From positions 1-56,073 of the IMG/VR virus record IMGVR_UViG_3300035698_005073: a stretch of DNA of 56,073 nucleotides; one strand, written 5' to 3'. The position numbers were made by a program, and so were the translations under genes. The notes beneath the pieces were generated by a model that was not told the DNA's origin, made no database searches, and saw nothing but the letters and a program-made list of their open reading frames with translations. Of this stretch, positions 1 to 56,073 are shown piece after piece (within the stretch, counting starts at the first letter, position 1; the number at the start of each line of letters is the position of its first letter). The stretch is from a virus.

Positions 1-421
1 CAAATATGCCTGGCTTGCAAGGGTAAAATTCACCAGCAACCCCCTTGATAATCCAGTCACCAAGAGATGCGGTGTGATCACCTTCCCAAGTTTCTATTCT
101 TAAAGTTGGGTTCCCGTCCCCATCATGTTCAGGATAACAATTGCACCGCACAAAATTATGTGCCATGTCTTTTTGTTTATCTGTAAATTGTATGGACTCT
201 ATTTCTACGGGCTTCTTTCTGGCTATTACCACCCCGGCAAATAAAGTCCCGCCATGCCCTTCTTCCACACCCGGCTGGCTAACCAAAGGCTGCTGTTCGG
301 ATGAAACCCACCCTTCCTCAATATACTTTTTTACTTTTCTTATTTGACTACCGCAATATCCTGAAGTTTTCGTAAGCCCTTCTATATCTTCCAAGCAATC
401 TTTAATCTCTTTCTTGTCCAT
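1..421 (-). CDS. Conserved phage protein of the 'EGDxTAS-GDWIIxGVxGEFYPCKPxIF' family, 3' end outside window
   Basis: Open from ATG at 421 to the window edge (140 codons seen), preceded by AGGA five bases upstream of the start. The C-terminal half has GDHTASLGDWIIKGV and GEFYPCKPGIF, a signature I recognise from many phage genomes where the protein is small and of unknown function. A basic 'ARKKPVEIESIQF' stretch precedes it, which is normally the N-terminus of the family. Here about 60 extra N-terminal residues, acidic and lysine-rich, come first. The stop codon is not in the window; if the molecule is circular the frame stays open across the junction for about 24 more codons. Function unknown. 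Confidence 0.75.
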   Translation of the reverse strand, partial: MDKKEIKDCLEDIEGLTKTSGYCGSQIRKVKKYIEEGWVSSEQQPLVSQPGVEEGHGGTLFAGVVIARKKPVEIESIQFTDKQKDMAHNFVRCNCYPEHDGDGNPTLRIETWEGDHTASLGDWIIKGVAGEFYPCKPGIF

Positions 422-536
422 AATTGTCCTTTCTGCCCCGCCGTTTCACCGCAGAGCCTCAATCGTTATTCGGAATTTTTGTTTCCCCTAACATCTCTCA
501 AGTTAAACAATTCAATCTTTTTCGATACGCTTAAAT

Positions 537-719
537 CTATTTTCCCCACCGATCACAGGTTTTAAAATATTCCCTACAATCACAAACATCAAATAATACT
601 TGGCATTCATCGTCTATTCTTTTACAGCAAAAACCACTATCACCATCATAATATCCATCTTTACAGTTAGCGCAGCATCTTCTATTTGTATCTCTTAAAT
701 TTTTTATCGCCTTTAACAT
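537..719 (-). CDS. Small cysteine-rich protein
   Basis: Sixty residues with nine cysteines arranged as CCxxC, CC, CxxxxxxCDC and C, which suggests metal binding rather than a disulfide-rich secreted peptide because no signal sequence is present. Start ATG at 719 follows a GGGGTTGGA purine-rich stretch. The gene sits alone between two palindromic spacers, the upstream one being the conserved leader repeat at 738-785, so it looks like a one-gene cassette. No family recognised. Confidence 0.5.
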   Translation of the reverse strand: MLKAIKNLRDTNRRCCANCKDGYYDGDSGFCCKRIDDECQVLFDVCDCREYFKTCDRWGK

Positions 720-737: not shown

Positions 738-785
738 CGCCGTTCATAAGCGCGCCTTGATGAGGCGCATTCACTAAGTATAACC
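738..785 (-). repeat. Conserved cassette leader repeat, copy 1 (hairpin)
   Basis: One of three copies of a 48-bp element lying just upstream of a leftward gene (others at 55557-55604 and 55941-55989). In gene direction it reads GGTTATACTTAGTGAATGC, a hairpin, then GCTTATGAACGGC. The hairpin here is GCGCCT-N5-AGGCGC; the other copies use different bases but keep pairing. The outer GTTATAC matches the R' half of an attC-type site. The matching R'' half on the far side is degenerate and falls inside the 3' end of the neighbouring gene. Confidence 0.65.
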
Positions 786-788
786 AAA

Positions 789-965
789 TCATGAAACGGA
801 TTTTGACCGCTCCGCCCTTCTTTTATATGCACGCCTCAAATCGTCAAGAATGTCCATACCGCCTGTCCATCCTTTAAATTTAGCATGTTCATCCGGCGTG
901 TCTGGTTCTTCCTGCATAAAATATTTTATCGCCTTATTTATTCTTTCAAATTCACGTCTTGTCAT
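789..965 (-). CDS. Small hypothetical protein, helical and charged
   Basis: Fifty-eight residues beginning MTRREFERINKAIKYF. I place the start at ATG 965 because GAGGTG lies six bases upstream; a TTG at 977 in the same frame would sit inside that ribosome-binding site. The sequence is highly charged and probably helical, with a basic C-terminus. The last codons run into the palindromic spacer upstream of the next gene, so the C-terminus may be partly derived from a recombination-site sequence. Function unknown. Confidence 0.5.
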   Translation of the reverse strand: MTRREFERINKAIKYFMQEEPDTPDEHAKFKGWTGGMDILDDLRRAYKRRAERSKSVS

Positions 966-1032
966 ACCACACCTCAAAACCGCTTATGATAAATCGTTAT
1001 ATTGTTTTTGAAGGGCCACAGGCCCAACCACC

Positions 1033-2055
1033 CTAGTGCGCCATCCTGTCATACTTACGCAATTCTGATTTTTCATCTAAGTGCCGTCTAATTATATCAA
1101 CAACAATCTCTCTCCTTTCATTAGGCCATTTCAAATGACGTGCAAGTTTATCAACAATGTCCCCACCCAAATAATCATGGTAATAGTAATGTGCATATCC
1201 CTTTTTTTTAAATCGCACAAATGGCTTTGCAATATCGTGCAGCAACGCCGCCCACCGCATATTCAAATCTTTAGGTGTAGCAGCTACCGTTAATTTAGTA
1301 TGTGTCCACAAATCATGCTGATGCCATTCATTGTTTTGATCATAGTCTTTTTGTATTGCAAGTTCAGGTATCATAAAACCTAGAACCATTGTATCCATTA
1401 ACAAATCTAATCCTAATTCTGGACTATCAGACATTAAGAGTTTATCCATCTCTTGGACCCACCGCTCTTTTGATATGTGTAATATTTTATAAGCACATTT
1501 TTTCAATTGGCCCTGTAAATACTGATCTACACTAAAACCATATTTAGCAACAAATCTAGCACATCTTAACATTCTTAAGGGGTCTTCTTTTAGTCTTGTA
1601 TGCGGGTTCCCAACGGCCTTTATCATTTTACCCATTATGTCTAATTTTCCACCAAACGGATCAATCAACTTTCCGTCTCTGTATGCAATAGAATTTATAG
1701 TAAAATCCCTACGGCTCAAATCAGCAGTAATGTCTTGTACAAATTCCACTTCAGGCTTACGGCTTTTGTATGTATATTTCTCAGTCCTAAAGGTTGTTAT
1801 CTCAACCATATTTCCAAGAACCTTACAACCAATAGTTCCAAACTTTTTACCAATATTATAGGCCTTTCTATTATCACCATGTTCGTTTTTTGATTTCTTA
1901 ATCAATGCTTCAATTTCATCCGGTGTGTGCTGGCAGCAAAAATCATAATCCTTTGGTTCATTGCCCATAATTATATCTCGAACAGCTCCACCCACCAAAT
2001 AAACAGGTGATAATATCTTTTTCACCTCTTCATAGGTTGTTTTGTAATCACTCAA
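1033..2055 (-). CDS. cca: CCA-adding enzyme / tRNA nucleotidyltransferase with HD domain
   Basis: Adds or repairs the 3'-CCA end of tRNA using CTP and ATP. The N-terminal class II polymerase-beta-like head shows LVGGAVRD (20-27), the catalytic DxD at D36/D38, RRDFT (115-119) and the RMLRCARF helix (161-168). A C-terminal HD domain is visible as LLHDIAKP (271-278) with further histidines at 245-252 and 289-293. The start is TTG at 2055, seven bases after AAGGAG, overlapping the stop of the upstream nucleotidyltransferase gene by eight bases, so the two are translationally coupled. The protein ends at 340 residues, shortly after the HD motif and next to a palindromic spacer, shorter than cellular enzymes, so it may be C-terminally trimmed. 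Family assignment is firm; substrate in vivo is inferred. Confidence 0.9.
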   Translation of the reverse strand: MSDYKTTYEEVKKILSPVYLVGGAVRDIIMGNEPKDYDFCCQHTPDEIEALIKKSKNEHGDNRKAYNIGKKFGTIGCKVLGNMVEITTFRTEKYTYKSRKPEVEFVQDITADLSRRDFTINSIAYRDGKLIDPFGGKLDIMGKMIKAVGNPHTRLKEDPLRMLRCARFVAKYGFSVDQYLQGQLKKCAYKILHISKERWVQEMDKLLMSDSPELGLDLLMDTMVLGFMIPELAIQKDYDQNNEWHQHDLWTHTKLTVAATPKDLNMRWAALLHDIAKPFVRFKKKGYAHYYYHDYLGGDIVDKLARHLKWPNERREIVVDIIRRHLDEKSELRKYDRMAH

Positions 2056-2704
2056 AATTCATTCTCCTTATATCCAAAAGTGTTTCATTGATTTTTCCAA
2101 AGTCTGGGTTTTCCGGCATATTACTCTCTATTTCATTGAATTCTTTAAATTTATTTTCAAACAATACCATCATCTCATCTATTGGCAGTTTGCTTATTTC
2201 AAAAAACACCTTTGGATTCTTAAGTCTTACATTCAATCCCCCTGTTTTAAGAAGCTCTTCCCCTTGAAATAGCAACCTAAAACAGTGTCGTGCATGCTTC
2301 TCATGCCTTGTGTCTTTATTGCCAAGTTGAGCCTTTTTGTACAACCGTTTCGCCTGTTGCAATGCGTACCCGCCATATGAATTATATACGGTCTTATTCA
2401 AAAATGCATCTCTAATTTCTATTAACATTCTACCTTCTTTTGTCAATTTCGTGTACTTGTCAAGAAAAAGCAGTTCTAGTATAGTTGGGTTGCATTTACT
2501 TGCAAGCCGCATAAATTTTTCAACTTCATGATGCTCAACGTCTGGCTTTGTTCTGTTGACTGTTTCCTTGCCTTTGCTTAAAGACAGTATTTTTAATGTT
2601 GGATATATCATAACGCCTTTTATATCAGTATCGCTTTCTACTGTATCTAAACCATAGGCTTTAGAACCAATTATCCCCTCCAATATTATTTTCATTTCTT
2701 TCAT
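2048..2704 (-). CDS. RlaP/YcgL-type nucleotidyltransferase (DNA polymerase beta superfamily)
   Basis: A minimal nucleotidyltransferase of the RNA-ligase-associated (RlaP) type, expected to transfer a nucleotide to an RNA or other acceptor. The catalytic head is clear: LEGIIGSKAYGL followed by SDTDIKGV, giving the GSxxYG and DxD motifs within the first 35 residues. The rest is helical, with NPTILELLFL typical of the family. I start at ATG 2704, eight bases downstream of AAGGAA; an in-frame TTG at 2770 would extend into the upstream attC-like palindrome. It overlaps the CCA-adding enzyme gene, so the pair probably acts together in tRNA end repair, which is an inference. No RNA ligase is seen nearby. 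Confidence 0.82.
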   Translation of the reverse strand: MKEMKIILEGIIGSKAYGLDTVESDTDIKGVMIYPTLKILSLSKGKETVNRTKPDVEHHEVEKFMRLASKCNPTILELLFLDKYTKLTKEGRMLIEIRDAFLNKTVYNSYGGYALQQAKRLYKKAQLGNKDTRHEKHARHCFRLLFQGEELLKTGGLNVRLKNPKVFFEISKLPIDEMMVLFENKFKEFNEIESNMPENPDFGKINETLLDIRRMNFE

Positions 2705-2744
2705 TATCTCTTTTCCTTCTTGTTTTTGGGTAAAGGCAAAAACA

Positions 2745-2835
2745 ACATAACCCACATTTGCAACGGCCAAGCCGTTACGTATTATGTTTTGGATAGTTAC
2801 AGTTGGCTTGTCCTATGAAATGCCACCCGTTATGT
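2745..2835 (-). other. attC-like recombination site (palindrome)
   Basis: Outer arms ACATAAC (2745-2751) and GTTATGT (2829-2835) pair perfectly and match RYYYAAC/GTTRRRY. Inside, CATTT (2755-2759) pairs with AAATG (2818-2822), and CAAGCC (2768-2773) with GGCTTG (2805-2810). The spacers between outer and inner arms are unequal, as in integron attC sites, and a loop of about 30 bases closes it. The stop codon of the neighbouring gene (2830) lies inside the outer arm. Orientation agrees with leftward genes. Confidence 0.6.
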
Positions 2836-3324
2836 GTCAAGACACTGGTACGGGTCTGTACAATTCTCTACATCTACACCGTGTGAACCATATACAGTTC
2901 CAGAATGTTCTTTCATTACTTTGTTGCAGCACAAATAATCCGTACCGCCTTGAAGTCCCGCACTTTCCCCCAACCCGCCCACTGGTGAACCAGAGTTTGC
3001 ATTTGGATTTTGACCCTGCCCTTCCAATTCATATAAATCCACATAAGCAAGCCAAATTATTTCTGCCATACAATCCCAAAAAAACTTTGTTATTGCAAGA
3101 CCAGAAGCACCGCCTTCAATGTGGCCCTCTTCGCGCCATATCTGTAAAACAGCGCGTTCTTCTTGATTAACTTTGCTAGGGTCAATCCTTTGGTTATTAA
3201 CAGCAACATATTGTACATAAGCCATTAACCTTAATTCGGTTTGATCAATTTCTCTTTTTAGTAATTTCTTTGATTTGGTCTTGATTCTGTCTGTCAATTG
3301 ACCTCTGCCTTGTCTTTTATCCAC
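2830..3324 (-). CDS. Conserved phage protein (REIDQTELRLM...EEGHIEGGASGLAI family)
   Basis: A 164-residue protein. Residues 15-95 (KSKKLLKREIDQTELRLMAY, then IDPSKVNQEERAVL, then HIEGGASGLAITKFFWD) match a small phage protein I recognise from enterobacterial and other phages; its function is not established. The last 60 residues are Gly/Asn/Cys-rich and unlike that family, ending within an attC-like palindrome, so the tail may be a later addition. The start is GTG at 3324, after AGGTGG. It forms a single-gene unit flanked by two attC-like sites. Confidence 0.75.
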   Translation of the reverse strand: MDKRQGRGQLTDRIKTKSKKLLKREIDQTELRLMAYVQYVAVNNQRIDPSKVNQEERAVLQIWREEGHIEGGASGLAITKFFWDCMAEIIWLAYVDLYELEGQGQNPNANSGSPVGGLGESAGLQGGTDYLCCNKVMKEHSGTVYGSHGVDVENCTDPYQCLDT

Positions 3325-3424: not shown

Positions 3425-3486
3425 GTATAACCAGCGTTAGAACGCGGATGCAAAGAAACGCACCGGTTAAACGCATCCCGTTATGC
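3425..3486 (-). other. attC-like recombination site (palindrome)
   Basis: A compact 62-bp site. Outer arms GTATAAC (3425-3431) and GTTATGC (3480-3486) pair with one wobble. GCGTT (3434-3438) pairs with AACGC (3470-3474). The apex CGGATGC (3445-3451) pairs with GCACCG (3460-3465) with one extrahelical A, leaving a short loop. The unequal spacers and the single bulged base are hallmarks of attC folded as single strand. It lies four bases 3' of the stop of the DUF551 gene. Confidence 0.65.
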
Positions 3487-3490: not shown

Positions 3491-3895
3491 TTAAAAATTC
3501 CCCACCGGATCATCTGGCAATGGCATCCAATGTGTAACACTATAACAGTCAGCTCTGATACATGGTTGAATTAAATTTAGATACCAATGCTTTCCTGTGG
3601 CATCATAGCCCACTCTTCTCTTTATTTTTTTGTTATAAACATTTTTATCTCCAACAAGATAACACAAATGATATTTACTTTCTTCTGGCAACCTATCTTT
3701 TACAGAAATCCACCCACCATTTTTAAGGCCACCCACTTCCATGACCTCGTCCCCTGTAGAACCCACGGCAGCACCGGATTTTGCCCCAGCCCCGTTTTTA
3801 ATTAATTCGTATATTTGATTTATAAAATAATCTCCAACTGGGTTGCAATCTCGCAAAGCACAGCACTCGTCTTTTAATTCCTCTCTCGTAATCAT
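3491..3895 (-). CDS. DUF551-containing phage protein
   Basis: The C-terminal part, from WISVKDRLPEE to VTHWMPLPDDP, is the DUF551 signature found in many phage accessory proteins; function unknown. The N-terminal 65 residues (CCALRDCNPVGDY..., then an Ala/Gly-rich linker) are not recognised. ATG at 3895 follows AAAGGAAATAAA. The gene is the last before the compact attC-like site at 3425-3486. Confidence 0.8.
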   Translation of the reverse strand: MITREELKDECCALRDCNPVGDYFINQIYELIKNGAGAKSGAAVGSTGDEVMEVGGLKNGGWISVKDRLPEESKYHLCYLVGDKNVYNKKIKRRVGYDATGKHWYLNLIQPCIRADCYSVTHWMPLPDDPVGNF

Positions 3896-5611: not shown

Positions 5612-5625
5612 TTTATCACTCCTTC

Positions 5626-6944: not shown

Positions 6945-6998
6945 TTTATTTCTCCCTTCAAAGCAAGCCGCTTGTGACAAAGGGCTTGCGAGGTAGTG

Positions 6999-7664: not shown

Positions 7665-7667
7665 GTT

Positions 7668-7955: not shown

Positions 7956-7970
7956 GCTTCACCTCGTTTA

Positions 7971-8222: not shown

Positions 8223-8235
8223 TTCTTCACCTCGC

Positions 8236-8298: not shown

Positions 8299-8507
8299 AT
8301 TTGGGCTTTCCCCATCCGTTTACATATCATGCCCTCCAATTAAACTCCTTATCAATGTCTACATGCTAACAAAGCAACAAGCATGCCACAAATACCACGC
8401 TCAAACTGTTAATAAATCAACACGTTAACCTGGATGATAACCAGCCACGTGTACGACTATCAACCACCACAAGTAACAGACTAACAGACTAACAGCCTCA
8501 AGATAGT
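8299..8507. other. Intergenic region between divergent genes, no gene seen
   Basis: Between the leftward cluster and two rightward genes. I see no convincing coding frame and no consensus sigma70 promoter. A short direct repeat (GACTAACA twice, around 8478-8496) is present. The leftward cluster must start transcription in or near here unless it is read from further upstream. Confidence 0.4.
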
Positions 8508-8524
8508 TTGGCATAAGGATTGCA
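8508..8524 (+). promoter_or_regulatory. Sigma54-like -24/-12 element (weak)
   Basis: TTGGCATAAGGATTGCA has GG and GC separated by exactly ten bases, as sigma54 promoters require, and lies about 45 bases before the start of the rightward gene at 8568. No enhancer-binding protein is visible in the window, so this may be chance. Confidence 0.3.
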
Positions 8525-8567
8525 ATAGACAGAGTACAACAAAAAACAAATAATGAGGGAATGTATT

Positions 8568-8753
8568 ATGATTAAAAAACCAAGAATCGGTATGACTGTT
8601 CATATCAGTAAGCGCGGTGGACCTGAATCGGGCAAGGGGAGAATAATAAGGTTTGAGGGTTATTTTAAATTTGATATTATGGTACGAATGAAAGCTAGTG
8701 GCATTATATACAGATTACATCGTGAAAACTTAAAAAGATGTTACTGGTATTAA
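8568..8753 (+). CDS. Small basic SH3-like protein
   Basis: Sixty-one residues from ATG 8568, seven bases after GAGGGA; an in-frame ATG at 8553 is less well placed. The pattern PRIGMTVHI, GKGRIIRFEGYFKFDIMVRM, YRLHRENLKRC suggests a small beta-barrel like the product of 4756-4932, but on the opposite strand. Function unknown. Confidence 0.6.
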   Translation: MIKKPRIGMTVHISKRGGPESGKGRIIRFEGYFKFDIMVRMKASGIIYRLHRENLKRCYWY

Positions 8754-8780
8754 ACTAACAATTAAAAGCGAGGTGTAATA

Positions 8781-9119
8781 ATGCAAGCAGAACAGACAAG
8801 TATTAAAGAATATGTAGAGGCGAACCCGGACGGCTTCACTATCGACACAGAAGGTAACCCGGTATCAGTTGATGATGGCTACTTTGTATCATTGACCAAT
8901 AACATGGTGACACTTGACACAGTCGACCATGAGTTTCTGCATCTGTGTCGTTCGGCCAACAAACTCAGTCGTGCAACCTACATTGGCGGTTGGGCTAATG
9001 AATTCTATCTTGACTTATCCGTTCACGTTGACTGTCTCCTTGTTGCTCAAGCCATTGCAGAGACATTTGGACAATCCGCGATATATGACTGTAAGAACTC
9101 CGATACAATCCTACTATAA
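8781..9119 (+). CDS. Hypothetical protein, 112 residues
   Basis: ATG 8781 follows GAGGTGTAATA, a strong ribosome-binding site. An acidic alpha/beta protein (EGNPVSVDDGYFVSLTNNMV ... VDCLLVAQAIAETFGQS) with no recognised family. Co-transcribed with the preceding gene and followed by a clear terminator. Confidence 0.65.
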   Translation: MQAEQTSIKEYVEANPDGFTIDTEGNPVSVDDGYFVSLTNNMVTLDTVDHEFLHLCRSANKLSRATYIGGWANEFYLDLSVHVDCLLVAQAIAETFGQSAIYDCKNSDTILL

Positions 9120-9154
9120 CCCACCTTTCCTCTTCCAAACACATCCACACTATA

Positions 9155-9192
9155 AAGGCCCTTAGCTAATAGCTTGGGGCCTTCTTCTTTTT
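9155..9192 (+). terminator. Rho-independent terminator
   Basis: AAGGCCC (9155-9161) pairs with GGGCCTT (9177-9183), with an inner AGCT/AGCT pairing, followed by a T-rich tract. It ends the two-gene rightward unit. Confidence 0.8.
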
Positions 9193-9456
9193 ACCCATAG
9201 CTAGACATGGGTCAACATGCGTTCATTCGTCTACGAGCTTGTGTGTGGCTCGCTTTGCATGTATGTCAGCTTGTTTCGGCTGTCATGTGGGTTTGTCAGC
9301 CTGTTTAGCATCAAAAGAAGGCTTTTTCGTTTTCAACGTGTTTCTTGATTTCCTTTTCCCAGCTCGGTTAGGGGCGGGCCGTCTTGTAGGAGTCCCCCGC
9401 AATCACATAAGCTCACATTTTTTTATTTTAAAATTTTCGCTAAATGATAACGCGCT
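9193..9456. other. Non-coding stretch, possible gene remnant
   Basis: About 265 bases after the terminator. Both strands have only short frames without good ribosome-binding sites. A frame on + (9239-9460) has unnatural composition and is rejected. A short leftward frame reading CDCGGLLQDGPPLTELG could be a decayed zinc-ribbon gene. ACCCAT/ATGGGT forms a small hairpin at the left edge. Confidence 0.4.
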
Positions 9457-9813
9457 TTAAGTGAACAGCCACAGCCCCACCACTAGATGTAACATTTGGT
9501 CCACCCCAATTGTAAAATAGAACCAATAATCTTTTGCATGTAAATTCCTATATTTGTATTCTTTATTGAATGGTCCTCTGGCTTTTTTAAATATGGACCA
9601 CACAAGTTTATCCAGTATTCCGTGGATAAGCGTGTTGAAGACCACATTTATATGGGAAATATCTAATAATAGTGCAAAAATGCTAAAACTTACATGGATT
9701 ATACACAAGTGAAATACCATCCACTTTAAAGAACTTGTCTTATTCTCTGCCCCTGCTCTTGGCTGTAGAATCCAATCACCTATGAAATGTGTTATGATAA
9801 CCCAGTAGCTCAT
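9457..9813 (-). CDS. DUF3307-like integral membrane protein
   Basis: 118 residues with three or four hydrophobic helices carrying the polar signature of the DUF3307 family: THFIGDWILQP near the N-terminus, LIHGILDKL in the middle and VDQMLHLVVG at the end. The conserved His/Asp/Gln residues inside membrane segments suggest a small enzyme or transporter, function unknown. ATG 9813 overlaps the end of the upstream gene; its ribosome-binding site is weak, so coupling is likely. Confidence 0.75.
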   Translation of the reverse strand: MSYWVIITHFIGDWILQPRAGAENKTSSLKWMVFHLCIIHVSFSIFALLLDISHINVVFNTLIHGILDKLVWSIFKKARGPFNKEYKYRNLHAKDYWFYFTIGVDQMLHLVVGLWLFT

Positions 9814-9952
9814 ATTTTTTCTTTTTCAACACACACCTTGTATGTTTAGACGTAACTCTTAATAGTCCCCATTCACCCCTTCGTCGATAATAATCTCCAA
9901 TGCTAACCATCTTTGTTTTCTTCAACTCATCAAGTATCTCTTGTTTTCCCAT
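9776..9952 (-). CDS. Small basic hypothetical protein
   Basis: Fifty-eight residues from ATG 9952, preceded by GGGGGAATAAT; the in-frame ATG at 9982 is poorer. Basic throughout (YYRRRGEWGLLRVTSKHTR), possibly nucleic-acid binding. Overlaps the DUF3307-like gene by 38 bases. Confidence 0.55.
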   Translation of the reverse strand: MGKQEILDELKKTKMVSIGDYYRRRGEWGLLRVTSKHTRCVLKKKKYELLGYHNTFHR

Positions 9953-9974
9953 ATTATTCCCCCTTTTCTTTTTT

Positions 9975-10262
9975 TTACACAAGTTTACTAACCAATATCA
10001 CGATAAACATTAAAAACATCCCAACCCATCCAGCTAAAATATCCTTATACGAAAAACCGTCTCCGCCCCACCATCCAAATTTCTCCCATGAAACTAGCCC
10101 GTCCTTGACTTCCCACAGCAAGGCAAATGTGGTTGTAATTATGAAAGCTATTAACGGATGTTTTAAAAGGAGTGACACAATAAAGAAAATTGCAGCATCC
10201 CTAATCATGTGTTGTGTTTTATCTTTACCTATCCACTTGTCTTGTGCAAAGTTAAATTTCAT
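9975..10262 (-). CDS. Inner-membrane protein, YfiM/DUF2279-like
   Basis: Ninety-five residues from ATG 10262 with AGGG ahead. Features are DKTQHMIRD, a hydrophobic helix, WEVKDGL, a Gly/Trp-rich loop and FSYKDILAGWVG followed by a second helix. The spacing of the DxxxH, E-x-x-D and D residues resembles the YfiM-type family, whose function is unknown. Sits with the DUF3307-like membrane gene in one operon. Confidence 0.6.
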   Translation of the reverse strand: MKFNFAQDKWIGKDKTQHMIRDAAIFFIVSLLLKHPLIAFIITTTFALLWEVKDGLVSWEKFGWWGGDGFSYKDILAGWVGMFLMFIVILVSKLV

Positions 10263-37823: not shown

Positions 37824-39748
37824 TGTACTATCCAGATAGGGACTTCTTTGAGGACGCGATAGCCAATATTGGGGCTGGTGCAATTGATGCTACCGAAAGG
37901 ACTGCAAAAGCCCTACATACAATTGGGCTCGTTGACCTTAGTGATTTTCTTCAAGATGTACAAGATTATAAGCAGACAGTGAGCTTTGACGATCCGTCTA
38001 GGCAGATGATCGAAAGCGGACTTACAAATACTGTTATGCAAGCACTTCGCTCTACTTCAAGCTCTGTTTTATCGAGACTTGCTGGATCTGGCGTAGGGGC
38101 TGGTGCCGGTTTTGCAGTGGGCGGTCCTATTGGGGCTGTAGCTGGTGCAACTATTGGTGGCATTGCTACCGGTGGACCCATTTACGGATTAGCAACTTAT
38201 TACGATTTTGTTAAAGATGCAGAGGCCGCAGGAATACCAAAGGCTATTTATCATGACGATGCTATCTTAGCCGCAGCAGCAGAGGGTGGCCTTGAAATGG
38301 CTTCTGATATAATATGGAGTCAAATATTCGGGCTTGCGTCAGTTGGGCCGCTTGACGATATGGCCAAATCATTAACTAAACCATTAGCCAAAAACTTTCT
38401 TGGAAAATTTGCAGTTAAATATCTAAAGACTGCTTCCGCTGAGATCTCTACTGAAATAGCCCAGGAATGGGTCGGACTTAAGCTTCGCCAGGGCGTTGGC
38501 CTTGATATGGACGTAAATCCAGATGAAGCCATTAAGGCTGTTATAGGGCCTACGGCTGTATCTTCTTTATTGTTTGCATTGGGCGGAGGAGCGGGAAGAG
38601 AACTTCAGAATCGCAACATTAAAGCACGAGATAAAGCTCTTGGGATATTGGAACGCATGTCGAGCGAACCAGATAAACCTATGACGATAGAAGAACAAAA
38701 AAGCCTTAAGGAAGTAGTTAGTACCCGCATGGAGAACATGCGAACACTAAACGGCTTTAGGTGGGACGAAGCAAATAACGCCAAAACAATAATCGATATA
38801 ACTGATTTGATACATCAATTCGGATTTAACTATGAGATGATGCCAGATAGCTGGGCTAAAAAAGGAAAGTACGGTCAGGTTGATGGTAAAAATAGGAATA
38901 TTAAGTTTATAAAAGATGCTTTTGTGGGTTCTCATGAATTGGGACATGCTATAAGTTTGTCATCTGCATTCCAACAAGTTCTACCCGCTACGTCTGTTAT
39001 GAAATCAATCCCATTAACGAATGAACTTAAAGACATTCACAGAAGTGCCGGATTTAACATGGCAGAGCAATACAATTCAGAATGGAGAACTAAATATTTA
39101 AAAGGGAAATACAGTTGGAGCCAGAAGTGGACTGACCTTTCTGATGCACAGAAATACAAAGAGGGTATGGCTTCTTTTATTGGGACATGGTTATACAAGC
39201 CAGAACATGCACAGAAGCTTGCGCCGCAGCTTTACGCTAAGTTAAATCCCGTTTTGGAGAACATGACCGCTACTCCGCAGCAATTGAAGTTTAATCGCAT
39301 TTCCGCACTTCAGTCTATGAAAAGTTCAACCGGTAAGGAAGCGCCAGTTAAATTCTTAGGCGTACAAAAGAATCCATTTGGGAAAGATTTAAAACTTTAC
39401 AACCTGACAGAAGATATTGAGGGGCATCCGATTGGATCTACGGTATCCGACGACACGTTAATTGATCTCGGCTATGATTTGCCAAGTGAATCGTTCGCGT
39501 CCACAGCGCCCAATAAAGGCGTGGATGGCTGGAATCAAGCAATTGAAGAACATGTGGGCGGTAAGTTATACGGTAAGTGGAGCACGGTATCTCCGAAAAC
39601 AAATCAGTCTGTAGTGGGAAAGGCCATTCTTCATCTTAATCATTATTTCGATGAGATACCAGGAGATTCGAAAACTCGTGGACTTTTAGTTAAAAATGCA
39701 ATTAGGGCTGGAAGGGCTGGTCAAAAAATAGCCAGTTCGCGCTCATAA
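37823..39748 (+). CDS. Internal virion protein with zinc-metalloprotease motif
   Basis: 641 residues from ATG 37823. A Gly/Ala-rich hydrophobic stretch (about 88-127: VGAGAGFAVGGPIGAVAGAT) could insert into membranes. Farther on, GSHELGHAIS (HExxH at 371-375) is followed about 72 residues later by KEGMASF, supplying a glutamate as in gluzincin metallopeptidases. Such peptidase domains occur in large polyvalent proteins carried in virions, where they may process phage or host proteins after entry. The catalytic motif is seen; the substrate is unknown. Confidence 0.7.
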   Translation: MYYPDRDFFEDAIANIGAGAIDATERTAKALHTIGLVDLSDFLQDVQDYKQTVSFDDPSRQMIESGLTNTVMQALRSTSSSVLSRLAGSGVGAGAGFAVGGPIGAVAGATIGGIATGGPIYGLATYYDFVKDAEAAGIPKAIYHDDAILAAAAEGGLEMASDIIWSQIFGLASVGPLDDMAKSLTKPLAKNFLGKFAVKYLKTASAEISTEIAQEWVGLKLRQGVGLDMDVNPDEAIKAVIGPTAVSSLLFALGGGAGRELQNRNIKARDKALGILERMSSEPDKPMTIEEQKSLKEVVSTRMENMRTLNGFRWDEANNAKTIIDITDLIHQFGFNYEMMPDSWAKKGKYGQVDGKNRNIKFIKDAFVGSHELGHAISLSSAFQQVLPATSVMKSIPLTNELKDIHRSAGFNMAEQYNSEWRTKYLKGKYSWSQKWTDLSDAQKYKEGMASFIGTWLYKPEHAQKLAPQLYAKLNPVLENMTATPQQLKFNRISALQSMKSSTGKEAPVKFLGVQKNPFGKDLKLYNLTEDIEGHPIGSTVSDDTLIDLGYDLPSESFASTAPNKGVDGWNQAIEEHVGGKLYGKWSTVSPKTNQSVVGKAILHLNHYFDEIPGDSKTRGLLVKNAIRAGRAGQKIASSRS

Positions 39749-39760
39749 CAAAATAGAATA

Positions 39761-42070
39761 ATGAACCCCCTCTCGTCTATGCGTTATGTCATGTCGAATA
39801 TTGAGAACGCATCAGATGTGCCTGGGCTTTACAAGAAATATATCGATTATATGGACCAGGCCTCAACGAATAGGCAAGTTGCACAGGAAAGTGTTGACCA
39901 ATTATTTAAAGACTTCGATGTAGACGTTAGGCAGTACAACAAACAAGAACGACAGAATGCCGCAGCATCTATTTTTGAAGAAGATAAAAAAGCAAGAAAA
40001 GAGCTAGCTGACAATTTAACACCAAAAGAAGCAAAACTCGCGCTTGCAATGGATACTGAATTACAGAATGCTACTGCTGGTGCTATTAGATTTGCAGAGT
40101 GGTTCAAGTGGAAATTGAGATCAGATAGGCCGTTGGGCGCTCTTAATACAACACGTAGACAGATTAAAAACCTATATGCTGAACAGGCAAAGAACACCAA
40201 AGACATCAAACAGGGTGTCAATACTAAGAAGAACATGCTCCGCAACCGCAGTATTAATAAAGAGATAGCGTCTCTAAAACAGAATTCAAAAGATATTAAA
40301 AAATCACTAGATGTTCTTAAGCCTCATAATGCAACAGTTGAAGATATGGAACTTGCTGACAAGATAAATAATGAGCAGGGCAGAAAGGCGCTACTTTCAC
40401 ATCTCGGAACCCAGGCACAATGGGGTACACGTAAACATTATTACATGTCTGAACATACGATGCCAGAATTCGAAGACTTGATCGATTCTATTATTCCTTC
40501 TCAAAACATTCAACCGTCCGGCAATGAATCAGCAGAATTCGGCATCCAGCCCGGCGAAGCCAAACCAAGAAAGAGCCCGACCCCAAGAATGAGAGAGGGT
40601 GACCCGATCTCTAATTTTTATAGTCACGTAGTCAGAGCTAAAACATTTGCGAACATGGCTGACCAGGTACTGGGTCTTACTGAAACATTTAAAACTGCGA
40701 ACCCTGCGACACAGGATGTCAGGTTGTTCAAGCGAACCGTCAAGAACTCACTGGGATTCGGCGAAGAGGTTGGCCCTGCAATTAAAGTTGCTGAGAAGTT
40801 TAACAGACTAGCATGGAGGACTTATCCCCTTGCAGTTGGACGCGGAGCATGGTTCTTCCTTAGGAACTTGGCACAGAACGTTGCATTAGCACCCGGTCAA
40901 TTTGACATGGGTGAATTTGCGAAAGCTACCGGAAGTATTATGACCCAGGGCCGGTCTCAGTTACTTAAAGAACACACTAAAAAGTATTTTAAAAATACTA
41001 TCTCCCAGAAAATGCCTATGTTTCAGCATCAAATGATGCTACAGGGCGAAGACCTGGTTGGTAAGGCTGGGTCTAAGATCACAAGGCTGATAGACAATGT
41101 TGGTCAAATCATTCCATTATCTGATGAAATTAACCGTAGTATACTTTTCCCGGTAGCCCATAGACTCGCCGAGATGAATGTCGAGAAGTACGCAAAGGGC
41201 GAGATAGATATTAATCAACTTAATGCACGACTACAACTAGACACCCTTGAAACTGGTGATACATTTGCAATGATTAAGATGCTTGAAGAGGGAAATCACT
41301 CGGATGCTATTTTACACTATGCCTCTCGCAAGGTAGAGAATGTTCACTTTAAATACACCACTGAACAGAAATCGGGCATGGAGCAGCATAGAGGGGCAAG
41401 GCCGTTCGTTGGTCTTTATACATGGCCGAAGGGATTAGTTGAATCATTCGTTAAAGGCGGAGCAAGTCCATTTGTTAATGGTATTCAAACAAAAGATTAC
41501 GGTCAAGCGTTTAGAGGTTTGAGGAATATGTTAGGCACCGCTGCTGGAATGTATGCCGCCAGGGAGCTTGTTAAGAAATTACTTGGAGAAAAAGGCGATC
41601 ACGGGGCATACGACATAATGGACACAGTGGCCGGTTTTCAGCCAGGTAGCCTTGGATTACATTTAACAATGGATGTCTTTGAAGACTTTAACCGTGCCGT
41701 TGATTATGCCCGTGAGGGTGATCTAGGTAGGGCTATGGAAGTAATGGGCGATAGGGTAGCTTACCATCTTCCACTTATTTACGATCTAACAAATACATAT
41801 GAAGCAATTAATGATAAAGCCGGTGTGAGAGCCACGAAAGCATTGCGTGGATTAATAGATACAAAGTTAAAAAAGCAAGGTAAGAACGCAAAACGCACTG
41901 CCGTTGAAGCATGGCAGCACGTCTTATTTGCGACAAATGAAAGAAAAGGTAAGACTAAACAAGAGAAAAAAGTGGATGAGTACTGGTCTAAAATGAATAA
42001 GCGCTTTGGTATCGAGCGACCGAAGTCTCCGAGTGAGATCAGGGAGAAACTTCTAGCACAGTATCGTTAG
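39761..42070 (+). CDS. Large internal/ejection-type protein
   Basis: 769 residues, helical. The segment RPFVGLYTWPKGLVESFVKG and the following AARELVKKLLGE, with QPGSLGLHL and VAYHLPLIYDL, resembles the C-terminal domain shared by large podovirus internal proteins and polyvalent proteins. Last gene of the rightward late operon, converging with the replication block six bases later. Start ATG 39761 lacks a strong site. Confidence 0.6.
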   Translation: MNPLSSMRYVMSNIENASDVPGLYKKYIDYMDQASTNRQVAQESVDQLFKDFDVDVRQYNKQERQNAAASIFEEDKKARKELADNLTPKEAKLALAMDTELQNATAGAIRFAEWFKWKLRSDRPLGALNTTRRQIKNLYAEQAKNTKDIKQGVNTKKNMLRNRSINKEIASLKQNSKDIKKSLDVLKPHNATVEDMELADKINNEQGRKALLSHLGTQAQWGTRKHYYMSEHTMPEFEDLIDSIIPSQNIQPSGNESAEFGIQPGEAKPRKSPTPRMREGDPISNFYSHVVRAKTFANMADQVLGLTETFKTANPATQDVRLFKRTVKNSLGFGEEVGPAIKVAEKFNRLAWRTYPLAVGRGAWFFLRNLAQNVALAPGQFDMGEFAKATGSIMTQGRSQLLKEHTKKYFKNTISQKMPMFQHQMMLQGEDLVGKAGSKITRLIDNVGQIIPLSDEINRSILFPVAHRLAEMNVEKYAKGEIDINQLNARLQLDTLETGDTFAMIKMLEEGNHSDAILHYASRKVENVHFKYTTEQKSGMEQHRGARPFVGLYTWPKGLVESFVKGGASPFVNGIQTKDYGQAFRGLRNMLGTAAGMYAARELVKKLLGEKGDHGAYDIMDTVAGFQPGSLGLHLTMDVFEDFNRAVDYAREGDLGRAMEVMGDRVAYHLPLIYDLTNTYEAINDKAGVRATKALRGLIDTKLKKQGKNAKRTAVEAWQHVLFATNERKGKTKQEKKVDEYWSKMNKRFGIERPKSPSEIREKLLAQYR

Positions 42071-52142: not shown

Positions 52143-52337
52143 CTATGTGTCCAAATATTTTGTAACGTAATCAAATACGAGTTCTGATTTTGTTACGCTC
52201 CAACACGAATTTCCATGTTTCATTACGTGAACTGCCTTTTCACCCTCTTCATTATGATCTACTGCAAGGCAGCAGGGGCTGGAAACTGCCCCATGTACCT
52301 GCTCGAACATCCATACCATTTTCTCTTCTTCATTCAT
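52143..52337 (-). CDS. Small acidic hypothetical protein
   Basis: Sixty-four residues behind GGAGGAGAATA, overlapping the stop of the glycoside-hydrolase-like gene. Contains SSPCCLAVDHNEEGEKAVHV. Unknown role. Confidence 0.65.
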   Translation of the reverse strand: MNEEEKMVWMFEQVHGAVSSPCCLAVDHNEEGEKAVHVMKHGNSCWSVTKSELVFDYVTKYLDT

Positions 52338-54180
52338 TATTCTCCTCCTCTTTTTTCTTTTTAGGCCAAAAGATTCCTGATAATATGGCCAATAATGCAG
52401 CTATAATACCACCAATTAACCCATAGTCTCCAAGTATATCTGTTTCCTCGGTATGTACGGGGTCAACAATGATTGGATCTTCAACGCCGGTAGATTCTGG
52501 AACATACACCAACTTAAATGCATCAGCAATCAATAAGCCGCCGTTATTTGATAAAACAACGTCTGTCGTACCAGTCAGGTTGAAAGTATCTATTCGATTC
52601 CATTGCCCCTGGCATGTTTTTTGATTGATAGGATAAGTTTGCCCTTGCACTAGGACCATCGCGGAATCTGTCTCCAAATCATCATGGTTGCCGTGCCACT
52701 CGTACAGATCGTAATTACCGGGCACATTCACAACAAAAATATATGTTGCAGTTCCATCCGTTGAATATGAATAGGCATAGAAATCTAGGTATTGATCAAC
52801 TAGGACGGAGTAATTGTCTCGATACGCGGGCGATTTTTCCCATTTGCCATTTAAAACGGCAGGGGCCTGACCTGGTGAGGTAACTAGATCTTGAGAACTA
52901 ATAATAATATCCGATACAATTACTTCAGGTGTTTTTAAAAGAATGATACCATCGCCCGTGCGTTTTAACAGCTTCGCCCCGTAATTTTCATTATACTTAC
53001 CGCCGAACAAATCTACGGAATCAAAAAGTTCGCCATTATTAAAGTCTGGATCTTGACCACCTTGAAATCGATAATACGGACCGGCATATCCATCCAAACC
53101 CTGCAAATCGTTGTCAGTAACAGTTACTTCTTTGCCGGTCAAATTACAAACATTTACACCGTTGTCGAAAAACCGAACGAAAATGTCTCGATCTCCAATC
53201 TTAACCGCACCAGAAACCGGATACCCCAAATCTGTATCGAACTCATCGTAATACTTTGCATTGCCGTGCCCAGGATGCCAACGATCCGTAAACCCAAAGT
53301 ATCCATCGCCAAGTAAACATTTTGTCAGCAAGAAACGTAAATAATAAAATCGATTCTTATGTTCTAACGACTTAAAATACGGGCTCTGACCATTATATGG
53401 AGCAGGGAATATGCTTCCATGTGGCTTATGGCAATTTTCTACTAAGTCAGAATAAACCCAACGGTCAAAGTTCACATTGTACACGTCGCCATCATACTCA
53501 ACGATGGCTCCGTTGATTGCCGATTTGTTCGGGTGCCCCTGCATCTGCCAGCCAGAATTAATAACTAGTAACTTATTAGGCCCAATCAGTTCCCGAATTT
53601 TATCAAGCATTTTTTCGACACCGTTATTCCAATGTCTCTTAATCCAGCTACGGTCATGCTCGTTCCAATCACTTACGCCGTTTGCATCCATATCAATTTT
53701 AATCTTTTTCGGGATATTGTCAACGCCGTCACCACTCCACAAACCGTCCGTAGCAAGGCCGTCAAATACATTCAAATTTACCCTATTAACAATGTATACA
53801 GCAAACCATTCCCAAGCCTGCTTGCCGTCCTTCTCAAGGCATTTATCAGAAAAATTTGGAGCCGTTTGTCCCCAAGATGGATTCAAAGCCCATCCATAAA
53901 AGCCAATTCTTTTACCATCGAACGTTTTTAATCTGTATTCATTTGGAAGTTCGCTACCCATATGGGCAGCTACGTTCCAATCAACCATGTACAGTACTTT
54001 TGTTTCCGGGTTGATCTGTTTTACTTCGTTGGCGAATCTTGCTGGCATATTAATCAAAACCAGATCGAATCTTGCCGCGTACTCTGGGGTATGACATGAA
54101 TAAATCATAGCCCCTGATCTTGGGAATGACTGTGCCATCAAAAACACCGGGAACAACAAAAAGAACAATGCACGTTTCAT
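52330..54180 (-). CDS. Membrane-anchored putative glycoside hydrolase with golvesin-like C-terminal domain
   Basis: 616 residues. Signal peptide MKRALFFLLFPVFLMAQS. Residues 20-330 (NVFDGLATDGLWSGDGVDN, FDTDLGYPVSGAV) look like the putative GH15-like (GHL15) barrel family; catalytic acids are not certain. Residues about 460-570 (YIFVVNVPGNYDLYEWHGNH, QGQWNRIDTFNLTG, GGLLIADAFKLVYV) are a golvesin C-terminal-like beta domain. A C-terminal helix (GLIGGIIAALLAILSGIFWP) plus a lysine tail anchors it. Such a protein would act on the outside of the host cell membrane, perhaps on surface polysaccharide. AAGGAG precedes ATG 54180. Confidence 0.75.
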   Translation of the reverse strand: MKRALFFLLFPVFLMAQSFPRSGAMIYSCHTPEYAARFDLVLINMPARFANEVKQINPETKVLYMVDWNVAAHMGSELPNEYRLKTFDGKRIGFYGWALNPSWGQTAPNFSDKCLEKDGKQAWEWFAVYIVNRVNLNVFDGLATDGLWSGDGVDNIPKKIKIDMDANGVSDWNEHDRSWIKRHWNNGVEKMLDKIRELIGPNKLLVINSGWQMQGHPNKSAINGAIVEYDGDVYNVNFDRWVYSDLVENCHKPHGSIFPAPYNGQSPYFKSLEHKNRFYYLRFLLTKCLLGDGYFGFTDRWHPGHGNAKYYDEFDTDLGYPVSGAVKIGDRDIFVRFFDNGVNVCNLTGKEVTVTDNDLQGLDGYAGPYYRFQGGQDPDFNNGELFDSVDLFGGKYNENYGAKLLKRTGDGIILLKTPEVIVSDIIISSQDLVTSPGQAPAVLNGKWEKSPAYRDNYSVLVDQYLDFYAYSYSTDGTATYIFVVNVPGNYDLYEWHGNHDDLETDSAMVLVQGQTYPINQKTCQGQWNRIDTFNLTGTTDVVLSNNGGLLIADAFKLVYVPESTGVEDPIIVDPVHTEETDILGDYGLIGGIIAALLAILSGIFWPKKKKEEENNE

Positions 54181-54537: not shown

Positions 54538-54608
54538 AAATAATCCCTAGCTTATGTTTCTGTCTATTGTTTTTATTGATTTTAAGACACACACCTACTA
54601 TCAATATG

Positions 54609-55187
54609 TTAGCTGGTTTCGCAAGGTTTTAGGGGTGGAAGAAGCTCTGGATGCTTAACTTGTTCAATCACCACCCCACAAAACTTATTCCAATGCGGCA
54701 AACGATGTGACCTTCGTTGTAGTATGATATTCCGCAACGTCTTGTAATTCATGCACCACATTCGTCTTTGTAGAAAACACTCCGGCAACAGTTGCTTTAA
54801 CAATACCAACTTTTTAACTGGGTCTTTAGTTTTTAGTGCCTCATTTAAAGCGTGTACTGTTTGCCCGTTTATAGCACCTGGATTTTCAAACGCATCTAAA
54901 TCGATCGCATTTGACATTTCTCTGACAAGCGTATGCATGGTTGATTCAGATTGTTTGGTGCTAATCCTATATGTATCGGCTTCCTGCCACCAGTAACGCG
55001 GTGCATTAACGGATATCCACACATAGATAGATTCCAAAAACTTATTATGTCCTCCATCCATTTGTGAAAGTTTTGCCGCCACCCCGGTCATGTCTTTTTC
55101 TTGCTTTTTGTTATATCCTAAACCGATAAGGGCAGCATCATAACCGGCTTCATCTACAATCTGAACGTCCATTGTATAATCAATCAT
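54609..55187 (-). CDS. ThyX-like phage protein
   Basis: 192 residues. KFLESIYVWISVNAPRYWWQ, EADTYRISTKQSESTMH and the C-terminal LPECFLQRRMWCMNYKTLRN ... RSHRLPHWNKF match a widespread phage family that resembles flavin-dependent thymidylate synthase (ThyX) in layout. The ThyX signature RHRxxSxNExSxRY is not intact (only R..S..QSEST), so catalysis is doubtful. Gene direction and the attC-like site upstream make it the boundary gene of the cassette region. Confidence 0.65.
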   Translation of the reverse strand: MIDYTMDVQIVDEAGYDAALIGLGYNKKQEKDMTGVAAKLSQMDGGHNKFLESIYVWISVNAPRYWWQEADTYRISTKQSESTMHTLVREMSNAIDLDAFENPGAINGQTVHALNEALKTKDPVKKLVLLKQLLPECFLQRRMWCMNYKTLRNIILQRRSHRLPHWNKFCGVVIEQVKHPELLPPLKPCETS

Positions 55188-55245
55188 CTTTTAGTCCTCT
55201 CTGTTTTTAGGGTTAAGGGCGAAACATCGGCTGTAGAAGCGCCTC

Positions 55246-55338
55246 AGCTAACCCGCGCGTGAAACGGCTAAACCGTCTCTTTTCTGGTTGTGGATGGTGC
55301 GCGGTTGGTTTATCCTATTACGCGCCATCCGTTATGCT
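55246..55338 (-). other. attC-like recombination site, hybrid ends
   Basis: Outer AGCTAAC (55246-55252) pairs with GTTATGCT (55331-55338) only if one base bulges. GCGCGT (55255-55260) pairs with ACGCGC (55320-55325), and GGCTAAACC (55266-55274) with GGTTTATCC (55307-55315) at 8 of 9. The unequal outer pair is what exchange between two cassettes produces: one half from the 55350 gene's cassette, the other from the ThyX-like gene's cassette. A second hairpin (GGATGG/CCATCC) lies across one arm. Confidence 0.65.
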
Positions 55339-55349
55339 TGCCAAATGGC

Positions 55350-55535
55350 CTATTCTACCATTATTGTTGTTGTGACACTATCCAATCCCATAGCCTTTAA
55401 AAACATACCTCTTTGATGTTCTGGTAGGCCCATAAAATCATTATTGTTTGCTTCCATGATAGCCTTTGCCTTCCAATTTTTTTCACACAATTCGTCAAGT
55501 TTTTGTTTGAATTCTTTACTGTTCACGTCCATCAT
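55350..55535 (-). CDS. Small hypothetical protein in a single-gene cassette
   Basis: Sixty-one residues, helical (SKEFKQKLDELCEKNWKAKA then FMGLPEHQRGMFLKAMGLDS). AAGGTGGTA precedes ATG 55535. Flanked by an 11-bp perfect inverted repeat, attC-like site on the 3' side and leader repeat plus attC on the 5' side, so it forms a complete cassette. Function unknown. Confidence 0.6.
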   Translation of the reverse strand: MMDVNSKEFKQKLDELCEKNWKAKAIMEANNNDFMGLPEHQRGMFLKAMGLDSVTTTIMVE

Positions 55536-55556
55536 TACCACCTTTCTTGGCCATTT

Positions 55557-55604
55557 GGCCGTTCATTAGCGCCGATTTGTGATCGGCATTCACTAAGCAT
55601 AACC
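55557..55604 (-). repeat. Conserved cassette leader repeat, copy 2 (hairpin)
   Basis: Copy upstream of the 55350 gene: GTTATGCTTAGTGAATGC, hairpin GCCGAT-N5-ATCGGC, GCTAATGAACGGCC in gene direction. The stem differs in sequence from copies 1 and 3 but not in position. Confidence 0.7.
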
Positions 55605-55677
55605 ATTGGCAGAACACGGCGACCCTACAAAAGCCTATCCTTACCGCCATCTCGCCGGTTAGCCTAAACGTTATGCT
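55596..55677 (-). other. attC-like recombination site, best example
   Basis: Outer arms AGCATAAC (55596-55603) and GTTATGCT (55670-55677) pair 8 of 8. Inner arms include CGGCGA (55617-55622) with TCGCCG (55652-55657), GGC/GCC and AAC/GTT pairs with single bulges, and a 29-base variable loop. Length 82 bp. Lies just 3' of the 55688 gene, its stop ten bases away. Confidence 0.7.
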
Positions 55678-55687
55678 TGCCAAAAAC

Positions 55688-55915
55688 TTATATTGTCCCC
55701 ACCACCATTTTCATATTAATATTATCAAGGGGTTGTCCCATATAATTAGCTGCTGCCTCACCCCAATTTCCAATATTCCATATTCCTCCGAGAGACATTT
55801 CATTCCACATTTCCTCAAAAATTTCGTCCATATTATTTGTGGGTATGGTCAGTTCAATTATACCACCCCCAATTAGTAATAACGAGTAATTTTCAATTTC
55901 CTTTTTCTGCGCCAT
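55688..55915 (-). CDS. Small hypothetical protein in a single-gene cassette
   Basis: Seventy-five residues from ATG 55915 behind AAAGGATAAGATC; upstream in-frame codons run through the leader repeat and are not used. IENYSLLLIGGGIIELTIPT then an acidic helix (NNMDEIFEEMWNEM). Alpha/beta, no family known. Flanked by the leader repeat at 55941 and the attC-like site at 55596-55677, and by a 9-bp perfect inverted repeat (55682-55690 and 55933-55941). Confidence 0.6.
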   Translation of the reverse strand: MAQKKEIENYSLLLIGGGIIELTIPTNNMDEIFEEMWNEMSLGGIWNIGNWGEAAANYMGQPLDNINMKMVVGTI

Positions 55916-55940
55916 GATCTTATCCTTTCTTTTAAGTTTT

Positions 55941-55989
55941 TCGCCGTTCATTAACGCTCTCCTGTATCGAGCATTCACTAAGCATAACC
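55941..55989 (-). repeat. Conserved cassette leader repeat, copy 3 (hairpin)
   Basis: Copy upstream of the 55688 gene: GTTATGCTTAGTGAATGC, hairpin GCTC...GAGC, GTTAATGAACGGC in gene direction. The following 80 bases to the window end hold CGG-N7-CCG and TTCTTT phrases also found beside copy 1, but no clean partner for the outer arm. Confidence 0.65.
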
Positions 55990-56073
55990 ACGTATAGCAC
56001 ACGGATCAAACCCGCCCTTCACACTCTTCTTTGTATAATAATATCCATCCAATAAGTGCCATATACCAACCCG

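What the first reader, a model, noticed from the sequence alone, without database searches (positions are those of the whole stretch)
54609..56073. Integron-like gene cassettes inside a phage genome (right end)
Two single-gene units (55350-55535 and 55688-55915) and the ThyX-like gene lie in one orientation, each separated by a long palindrome with attC architecture (55246-55338, 55596-55677): RYYYAAC/GTTRRRY outer arms, unequal spacers, inner L''/L' stem with bulged bases, variable loop. Cassette arrays are known from bacterial chromosomes; cassettes in a phage genome without its own integrase would be a new or rarely described vehicle for moving them.
Basis: partly seen in the sequence, partly recalled or inferred. 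Interest (0 to 1): 0.88.

Follow-up and report, generated by a model that had tools for sequence, protein, structure and literature searches.

The report
Backwards integron gene cassettes in phage
This phage genome carries a row of genes boxed between integron recombination sites, the kind bacteria use to swap genes, but every gene faces the wrong way relative to its site and several are ordinary phage genes, suggesting that phages use the bacterial gene-swapping machinery for their own genes.

Summary
A detector trained only on known attC sites puts its four best hits of the 56-kb window in one array: 778-1002, 2745-2835, 3425-3486 and 55597-55676 (35.6-43.1; 400 shuffled windows gave four hits this high in total). 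55246-55337 scores low alone but fits in context. All share the attC layout, with a bulged base at position 16 of the left arm, and each site's arms pair with each other and not with another site's arms.

The array spans both contig ends (54608 to 56073, then 1 to 3486, with an unsequenced gap). It includes the ThyX-like gene, boxed by the window's only GTTAGCT and only AGCTAAC.

All sites point along +, whereas the genes lie on -. The same test called orientation correctly for 28/28 control sites. One 225-nt site encloses a whole ORF in its loop. Cassette contents with relatives are phage genes (RlaP + CCA-adding enzyme, ThyX-like).

Clusters of attC sites without integrase are already known in phages (PMC9892861). 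New here are the uniformly antisense genes, the phage-gene cargo and the ORF inside a site. Recombination was not tested, and no integrase was found in the sequenced part.

The parts
54608..54614 (+). GTTAGCT, left boundary core of the ThyX cassette (first cassette of the array in + orientation)
   Evidence: Only GTTAGCT in the window; its complement AGCTAAC, also unique, is R'' of attC A; together they flank the ThyX-like gene
54609..55187 (-). ThyX-like gene, 192 aa, antisense to its attC
   Evidence: Pfam Thy1 E=7.7e-4 (below cut-off), PHROG 6721 E=7e-27; 18 IMG/VR loci encode relatives, none with an attC-like hit >=32 nearby
55246..55337 (+). attC A (ThyX cassette); array R' belongs to the next cassette
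   Evidence: Score 24.4 on +, 3.9 on -; stem-only 11.7 vs 1.7; own arms pair best; similar to site 2745-2835
55350..55532 (-). gene 2, 60 aa, unknown; cassette core 55331-55596
   Evidence: ATG with upstream AAGAAAGGTGG; weak PHROG 12421 E=0.047; cassette ends form a 20-bp inverted repeat interrupted by hairpin X
55560..55596 (-). hairpin X, 5' leader of gene 2, directly abutting R'' of attC B
   Evidence: RNA fold -10.1 kcal/mol; copies differ in sequence but keep the stem
55597..55676 (+). attC B
   Evidence: Score 39.8 (+) vs 19.6 (-); covariance model R1 13.2 bits, E about 1, + strand; bottom strand folds as an attC hairpin with bulges
55688..55915 (-). gene 1, 75 aa, unknown
   Evidence: ORF with upstream GAAAGGATAAGATC; no relatives in phage, viral or genome collections; cassette ends match over 20 of 21 bp with X inserted
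55945..55981 (-). hairpin X, 5' leader of gene 1
   Evidence: RNA fold -8.1 kcal/mol
55982..56073 (+). left arm of attC C, cut by the contig end (tentative)
   Evidence: GCATAACCACGTATAGCACACGG carries R'' and G at position 16; no partner arm found in 1-1500
277..471 (+). possible attC (tentative)
   Evidence: Score 23.0 (+) vs 6.7 (-), not above background
2..421 (-). phage gene (PHROG 419 domain) running off the left contig end
   Evidence: PHROG 419 E=3e-23, residues 67-140
537..719 (-). small unknown gene, 60 aa
   Evidence: ORF; preceded by hairpin X
741..777 (-). hairpin X, third copy, abutting R'' of attC D
   Evidence: RNA fold -12.3 kcal/mol; BLAST match to 55554-55605 at 79%
778..1002 (+). 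attC D, 225 nt, with an ORF in its loop
   Evidence: Best hit in the window, 43.1 (+) vs 21.2 (-); own arms 20.1 vs at most 4.6 for its left arm with other sites' right arms; bottom strand folds with R and L stems
789..977 (-). 62-aa ORF lying inside the loop of attC D
   Evidence: weak PHROG 11586 E=0.01
1033..2055 (-). CCA-adding tRNA nucleotidyltransferase, cassette II
   Evidence: PHROG 2244 E=7e-70, Pfam PolyA_pol; 71% identical relative in an IMG/VR phage without attC nearby
2048..2725 (-). RlaP-like nucleotidyltransferase, cassette II
   Evidence: Pfam RlaP 3.8e-23, PHROG 388 E=7.8e-44
2745..2835 (+). attC of cassette II
   Evidence: Score 35.6 (+) vs 12.4 (-)
2830..3324 (-). phage gene, 164 aa, cassette III
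   Evidence: Residues 7-95 60% identical to a Pseudomonas phage Itty13 protein
3425..3486 (+). attC of cassette III, last site of the array
   Evidence: Score 41.6 (+) vs 8.2 (-)
3491..3895 (-). DUF551 phage gene, flank after the last attC
   Evidence: Pfam DUF551 8e-13, PHROG 924

Best explanation
The phage carries a cluster of integron gene cassettes (at least five attC sites, at least five cassettes) inserted into its leftward gene block, between a DUF551 gene and a ribbon-helix-helix gene. Shown here: the sites have attC sequence and structure, their top strand is +, and all genes are on -, so the genes are antisense to their own attC. Inferred: the - strand of each site folds when single-stranded (phage replication or DNA entry would expose it), an integron integrase made by the host or a co-resident element binds it, and cassettes are inserted, excised or shuffled as circles. 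Insertion next to an existing attC keeps site orientation fixed, and because the phage transcribes this region leftward only, cassettes whose genes run against the attC are expressed and kept. Cassettes thus ride as parts of a phage operon instead of behind an integron promoter. The cargo is largely phage genes, so the exchange is more likely phage-to-phage than bacterium-to-phage.
For: Detector trained on plasmid, Shewanella, Vibrio and Tetrasphaera-phage attCs: the four best window hits are all in the array and all on +; 0.01 such hits per shuffled window; held-out sites of virus Rctr41k score 33-37. Strand: 28/28 controls called correctly when their locus was left out of training; window sites + 24-43 vs - 4-21. 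Arm swap: the native pairing of the five sites is the best of 120. Cassette units: starts and ends match each other and not their neighbours for ThyX, gene 2, gene 1 and RlaP-CCA; GTTAGCT/AGCTAAC unique. Bottom strands of B and D fold as attC hairpins. No tyrosine recombinase in the window. Phage cargo. Phage attCs can be recombined by IntI1 (PMC9892861).
Against: The covariance model built here finds only B, at E about 1; it also misses most long-loop Vibrio and all Rctr41k sites, so it is insensitive rather than contradictory. No relative of this array was found to show cassette gain or loss. attC A, half site C and 277-471 do not stand alone statistically. Cassette III and the cassette holding 537-719 do not show matching ends. 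Uniformly antisense genes are not how integron cassettes normally look. The detector's layout was fixed after the window sites had been looked at, although its weights and the shuffles are independent of them.
Confidence: 0.72

Rival explanations
1. The palindromes are phage intergenic hairpins (terminators, RNA processing or mRNA-stabilising elements) that resemble attC by convergence; the array is an ordinary operon of small early genes.
For: All sites lie between or around genes of one leftward operon; the X leader is an RNA hairpin on the gene strand; all known cargo is phage-type.
Against: Terminator-like sites are no more frequent than in shuffles. The layout R''-8 nt-extrahelical base-6 nt on the + strand only, the R boxes GCATAAC/GTTATGC and the unique GTTAGCT/AGCTAAC pair are not expected of terminators. 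The attC signal favours the strand opposite the mRNA.
Confidence: 0.15
2. Degraded bacterial integron fragment carried by accident: a CALIN picked up from the host chromosome, no longer mobile.
For: Most CALINs are thought to be degraded integrons (PMC9024848); site A has a divergent R''.
Against: Sites are well formed and cassette ends match; cargo is phage genes in phage transcriptional orientation; gene 1 has no relative in 84,980 bacterial and archaeal species genomes at the sensitivity used; G+C of array 0.395, rest 0.416.
Confidence: 0.08
3. The units are non-integron mobile elements (gene boxes bounded by GTTATGCTT...AAGCATAAC inverted repeats, MITE-like), with the attC-like hairpins as spacers.
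For: Genes 1 and 2 are each bounded by 20-21-bp inverted repeats including hairpin X.
Against: The inverted repeats differ between cassettes, no target-site duplication was noticed, and the spacers themselves carry attC structure with independent own-arm pairing.
Confidence: 0.05

Closest known systems
CALINs in phages (Tetrasphaera phage TJE1, Pseudoalteromonas phage PH101, Polaribacter phage P12002L; Qi et al. 2023, PMC9892861)
   Same: attC sites and cassettes in a phage genome without an integron integrase; TJE1 sites have the same layout and R boxes (GTATAAC/GTTATGC) and were used here as training and control sites
   Different: TJE1 and Rctr41k cassettes are sense to their attC; here all genes are antisense, cargo includes typical phage genes, and one attC encloses an ORF
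Integron in virus Rctr41k (KX853513, DAMO enrichment)
   Same: Row of at least five attC-like sites in a phage contig, G or C extrahelical base at position 15-16, spacer' of similar length
   Different: Carries an IntI-like integrase (45% to IntI1); sites about 130 nt; genes sense
Chromosomal and class 1 integron cassettes
   Same: R''/L''/L'/R' layout; extrahelical bases on one side; cassette core complementary to its own R''
   Different: No attI, no integrase found; genes antisense; extended complementarity of cassette ends with an inserted hairpin
attG integration sites (Loot et al. 2024, cited in PMC12444791)
   Same: Would explain how a first cassette entered a phage genome without attI
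   Different: Not tested here; only the boundary ATATG/TTAGCT at 54608 is visible

Membership tests
Integron attC sites | R''/R' boxes ending AAC / starting GTT, complementary | tested here: met
   All five complete sites; exact complement in B and 2745-2835, 1-3 mismatches in the others
Integron attC sites | Inner imperfect L''/L' stem with unpaired spacers and variable loop | tested here: met
   Own-arm stem scores 11.7-20.1; native pairing best of 120 permutations
Integron attC sites | Two extrahelical bases on the same side (T-N6-G, T-N6-C or A-N7-8-C in the bottom strand, PMC3053210) | tested here: inconclusive
   First base (G at + position 16) in all five sites; the second is a clear A in 778-1002 and 3425-3486, a C/A mismatch in two, absent in B
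Integron attC sites | Score above background in an attC model | tested here: met
   Own detector, four sites 35.6-43.1 against 0.01 per shuffled window; covariance model R1 weak, B only, E about 1
Integron attC sites | Recombination of the folded bottom strand by an IntI | not testable with these tools
   Needs an attC x attI assay
Gene cassettes | Start core TTRRRY complementary to the cassette's own R'' | tested here: met
   ThyX 6/6 (GTTAGCT/AGCTAAC), gene 2 6/6, gene 1 6/6, RlaP-CCA 5/6, cassette III 4/6
Gene cassettes | Usually one gene, sense to attC (typical, not strictly defining) | tested here: not met
   All genes antisense; RlaP-CCA cassette has two genes
CALIN | At least two clustered attC sites and no integron integrase | tested here: met
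   At least 4-5 sites; no PF00589 match in the window; the array gap is unsequenced
Complete integron | intI gene, attI and Pc beside the array | tested here: not met
   No tyrosine recombinase; a small ribbon-helix-helix-like gene lies beside the first cassette; attI not assessable without intI

The most novel reading that the evidence does not exclude
Phages keep their own cassette economy: phage early genes (ThyX-like, RlaP-CCA, small unknown genes) are packaged as integron cassettes with antisense genes suited to a phage operon, and are swapped among phages by host integron integrases acting on phage single strands.
Probability: 0.35. Interest if true: 0.85.

Novelty: new variant of a known kind. 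Interest (0 to 1): 0.62.

Why it matters
Phage attC clusters have been read as bacterial cassettes hitch-hiking on phages. Here the cassettes carry phage genes, all turned to fit the phage's transcription and against the usual cassette orientation, which points to integron recombination being used for phage gene exchange. It gives concrete sites on which a bench test of cassette movement between phages could be run.

Tried and rejected
Rfam scan of the window: nothing. First relaxed palindrome scan: too noisy, rejected. Covariance model R1 from loop-trimmed attCs: insensitive to long loops. Exact search for hairpin X in viral and bacterial genome collections: none. Relatives of the phage by terminase and capsid in IMG/VR: none. 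Gene 1 in viral, phage and genome collections: none; gene III in IMG/VR: none. Partner arm of half site C at the left contig end: none convincing. The hit at 39743-39789 (R1 15.4 bits, own detector 27.6) was judged chance: its inner stem scores only 2.6. The idea that gene-flanking inverted repeats are separate mobile elements is kept only as a rival.

Full report
What was checked. The window is a 56,073-base IMG/VR viral record of linear type, with no repeat at its ends. It is a real phage: terminase, portal, an internal virion protein, DnaB-like helicase and exonuclease are recognisable. A DNA self-comparison also matched 55554-55605 to 735-786 at the other end of the record, which led to a second row of small genes and palindromes at 1-3.5 kb.

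An attC detector independent of the window. Arrays were fetched from plasmid class 1 integrons, Shewanella phage M16-3, Vibrio phage p16, Tetrasphaera phage TJE1 and virus Rctr41k. 21 known sites (Rctr41k left out) gave weights for the R'' and R' boxes; the inner stem was scored with one extrahelical base at position 16 of the left arm, the position at which the control sites show it. On the window the four best hits were 778-1002 (43.1), 3425-3486 (41.6), 55597-55676 (39.8) and 2745-2835 (35.6), all on the + strand; the next was 29.9. In 400 dinucleotide shuffles of the whole window four hits reached 35.5 and one 39.5. In 244 kb of other phage DNA only TJE1's own attCs exceeded 32. Held-out Rctr41k sites scored 33.4-37.0. 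55246-55337 scores 24.4 and is accepted only on context.

Orientation. With each control's locus left out of training, the coding-sense strand scored higher in 28 of 28 control sites. All window sites score much higher on + (24.4-43.1) than on - (3.9-21.2). The genes are on -: ThyX-like, RlaP and CCA-adding enzyme, the Itty13-related gene and DUF551 have homologues, so their strand is certain.

Structure. Each site's left arm pairs with its own right arm; of the 120 ways to pair five left arms with five right arms the native one is best (75.0, mean 28.6). This includes 778-1002, whose arms are about 200 nt apart with a 62-aa ORF (789-977) between them. Its left arm reads GTATAAC CAAATCAT G AAACGG A, with both extrahelical bases in the position described for attC sites (PMC3053210). 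The bottom strands of 55597-55676 and 778-1002 fold into the expected bulged hairpins. Folding energy alone is only modestly better than shuffles for most sites, so the claim rests on layout and pairing, not on energy.

Cassette units. In an integron, a cassette's first bases are complementary to the R'' box of its own attC (general knowledge of cassettes). The ThyX-like gene lies between the only GTTAGCT and the only AGCTAAC of the window (54608 and 55246), which also explains the mismatched R''/R' of site A in the array. Genes 2 and 1 show 6/6, RlaP-CCA 5/6, cassette III 4/6. For the first four the match extends beyond the core: gene 2 over 20 bases, gene 1 over 20 of 21, RlaP-CCA over 14 of 15, ThyX over 8 plus 7, each interrupted on the gene-start side by an 18- to 35-nt insert. 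Within these four, a cassette's start matches its own end better than another's when the R boxes are included. In genes 1 and 2 and before 778-1002 the insert is hairpin X, AGTGAATGC-N13-GCGYTWATGAACG, whose stem is kept with different bases. Its role is unknown; it lies in the 5' leader of the genes.

Array limits. Read along +, the array starts at 54608 (first cassette core, beside a small ribbon-helix-helix-like gene) and ends at 3486 (last R', beside DUF551), running across the contig ends. Repeated attC sites are known to break assemblies (PMC9024848), which fits a contig that begins and ends inside the array. An unknown stretch, possibly with more cassettes, is therefore missing, and the absence of an integrase holds only for what was sequenced.

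Cargo. RlaP and CCA-adding enzyme form a two-gene unit; the same pair in the same order, with CCA 71% identical, occurs in another IMG/VR phage without attC sites above background (L012). The ThyX-like gene has relatives in 18 IMG/VR loci, none with an attC-like site scoring 32 or more nearby. The 164-aa gene shares its N-terminal half with Pseudomonas phage Itty13 (60%), whose region also lacks attC hits. Gene 1 has no relatives in phage, viral or bacterial collections at the sensitivity used. The evidence favours phage genes that became cassettes over bacterial cassettes that entered a phage.

How it probably works. Shown: attC-type sites, their orientation, the cassette units, the cargo. 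Inferred: an integron integrase supplied in trans acts on the folded - strand; new cassettes join next to existing attC sites in fixed orientation; only cassettes whose genes run with the phage's leftward transcription are useful, hence the uniform antisense pattern. A first entry could have been at a non-classical attG site (Loot et al. 2024, cited in PMC12444791); the boundary ATATG/TTAGCT is all that can be seen of it.

Known and new. attC clusters without integrase in virulent and temperate phages, and their recombination by IntI1, are published (PMC9892861). What is not described there or found in the library is an array whose genes are all antisense, whose cargo is phage genes, and an attC with an ORF in its loop. 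The library searched is open-access only.

Limits. The official attC covariance models could not be run; the home-made model R1 found only 55597-55676, at E about 1, and also missed most Vibrio and all Rctr41k sites. The detector's layout was chosen after looking at the window, although its weights and the shuffled controls are independent. No close relative of the phage was found, so gain or loss of a cassette has not been seen, and the host is unknown.

Noticed in passing
L011 (virus Rctr41k, KX853513) 4680-10100: A phage contig with an IntI-like integrase (annotated only as integrase-like xerD, 45% to IntI1) followed by a row of at least five well-formed attC sites (6641-9434) bounding sense genes including a DNA methyltransferase: apparently a complete integron in a phage, not named in the text of PMC9892861.
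   Followed up: partly
window 55560-55596, 55945-55981, 741-777 (- strand): Hairpin X: a 35-nt leader with a covarying stem and a conserved short start ATGAACGGC, placed between attC R'' and the gene; no exact match in viral or genome collections. Could be a translation leader.
   Followed up: partly
window 54608-56073 and 996-2835: Extended inverted complementarity between the start and end of the same cassette, well beyond the R boxes, interrupted by an insert on the gene-start side; in an excised circle this would lengthen the attC stem.
   Followed up: partly
window 277-471 (+): Possible further attC whose left arm lies inside the reading frame 2-421, at the linker before the PHROG 419 domain.
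   Followed up: partly
window 39743-39789: Short palindrome between two structural genes that the attC covariance model scores at 15.4 bits; inner stem is poor, probably chance.
   Followed up: partly
window 5626-6321 (-): Repeat-rich protein with about 20 pentapeptide repeats ([10 protein letters not shown] type).
   Followed up: no
window 52330-54180 (-): 616-aa protein with a signal-like N-terminus and a C-terminal hydrophobic stretch followed by lysines, unusual for a phage early region.
   Followed up: no
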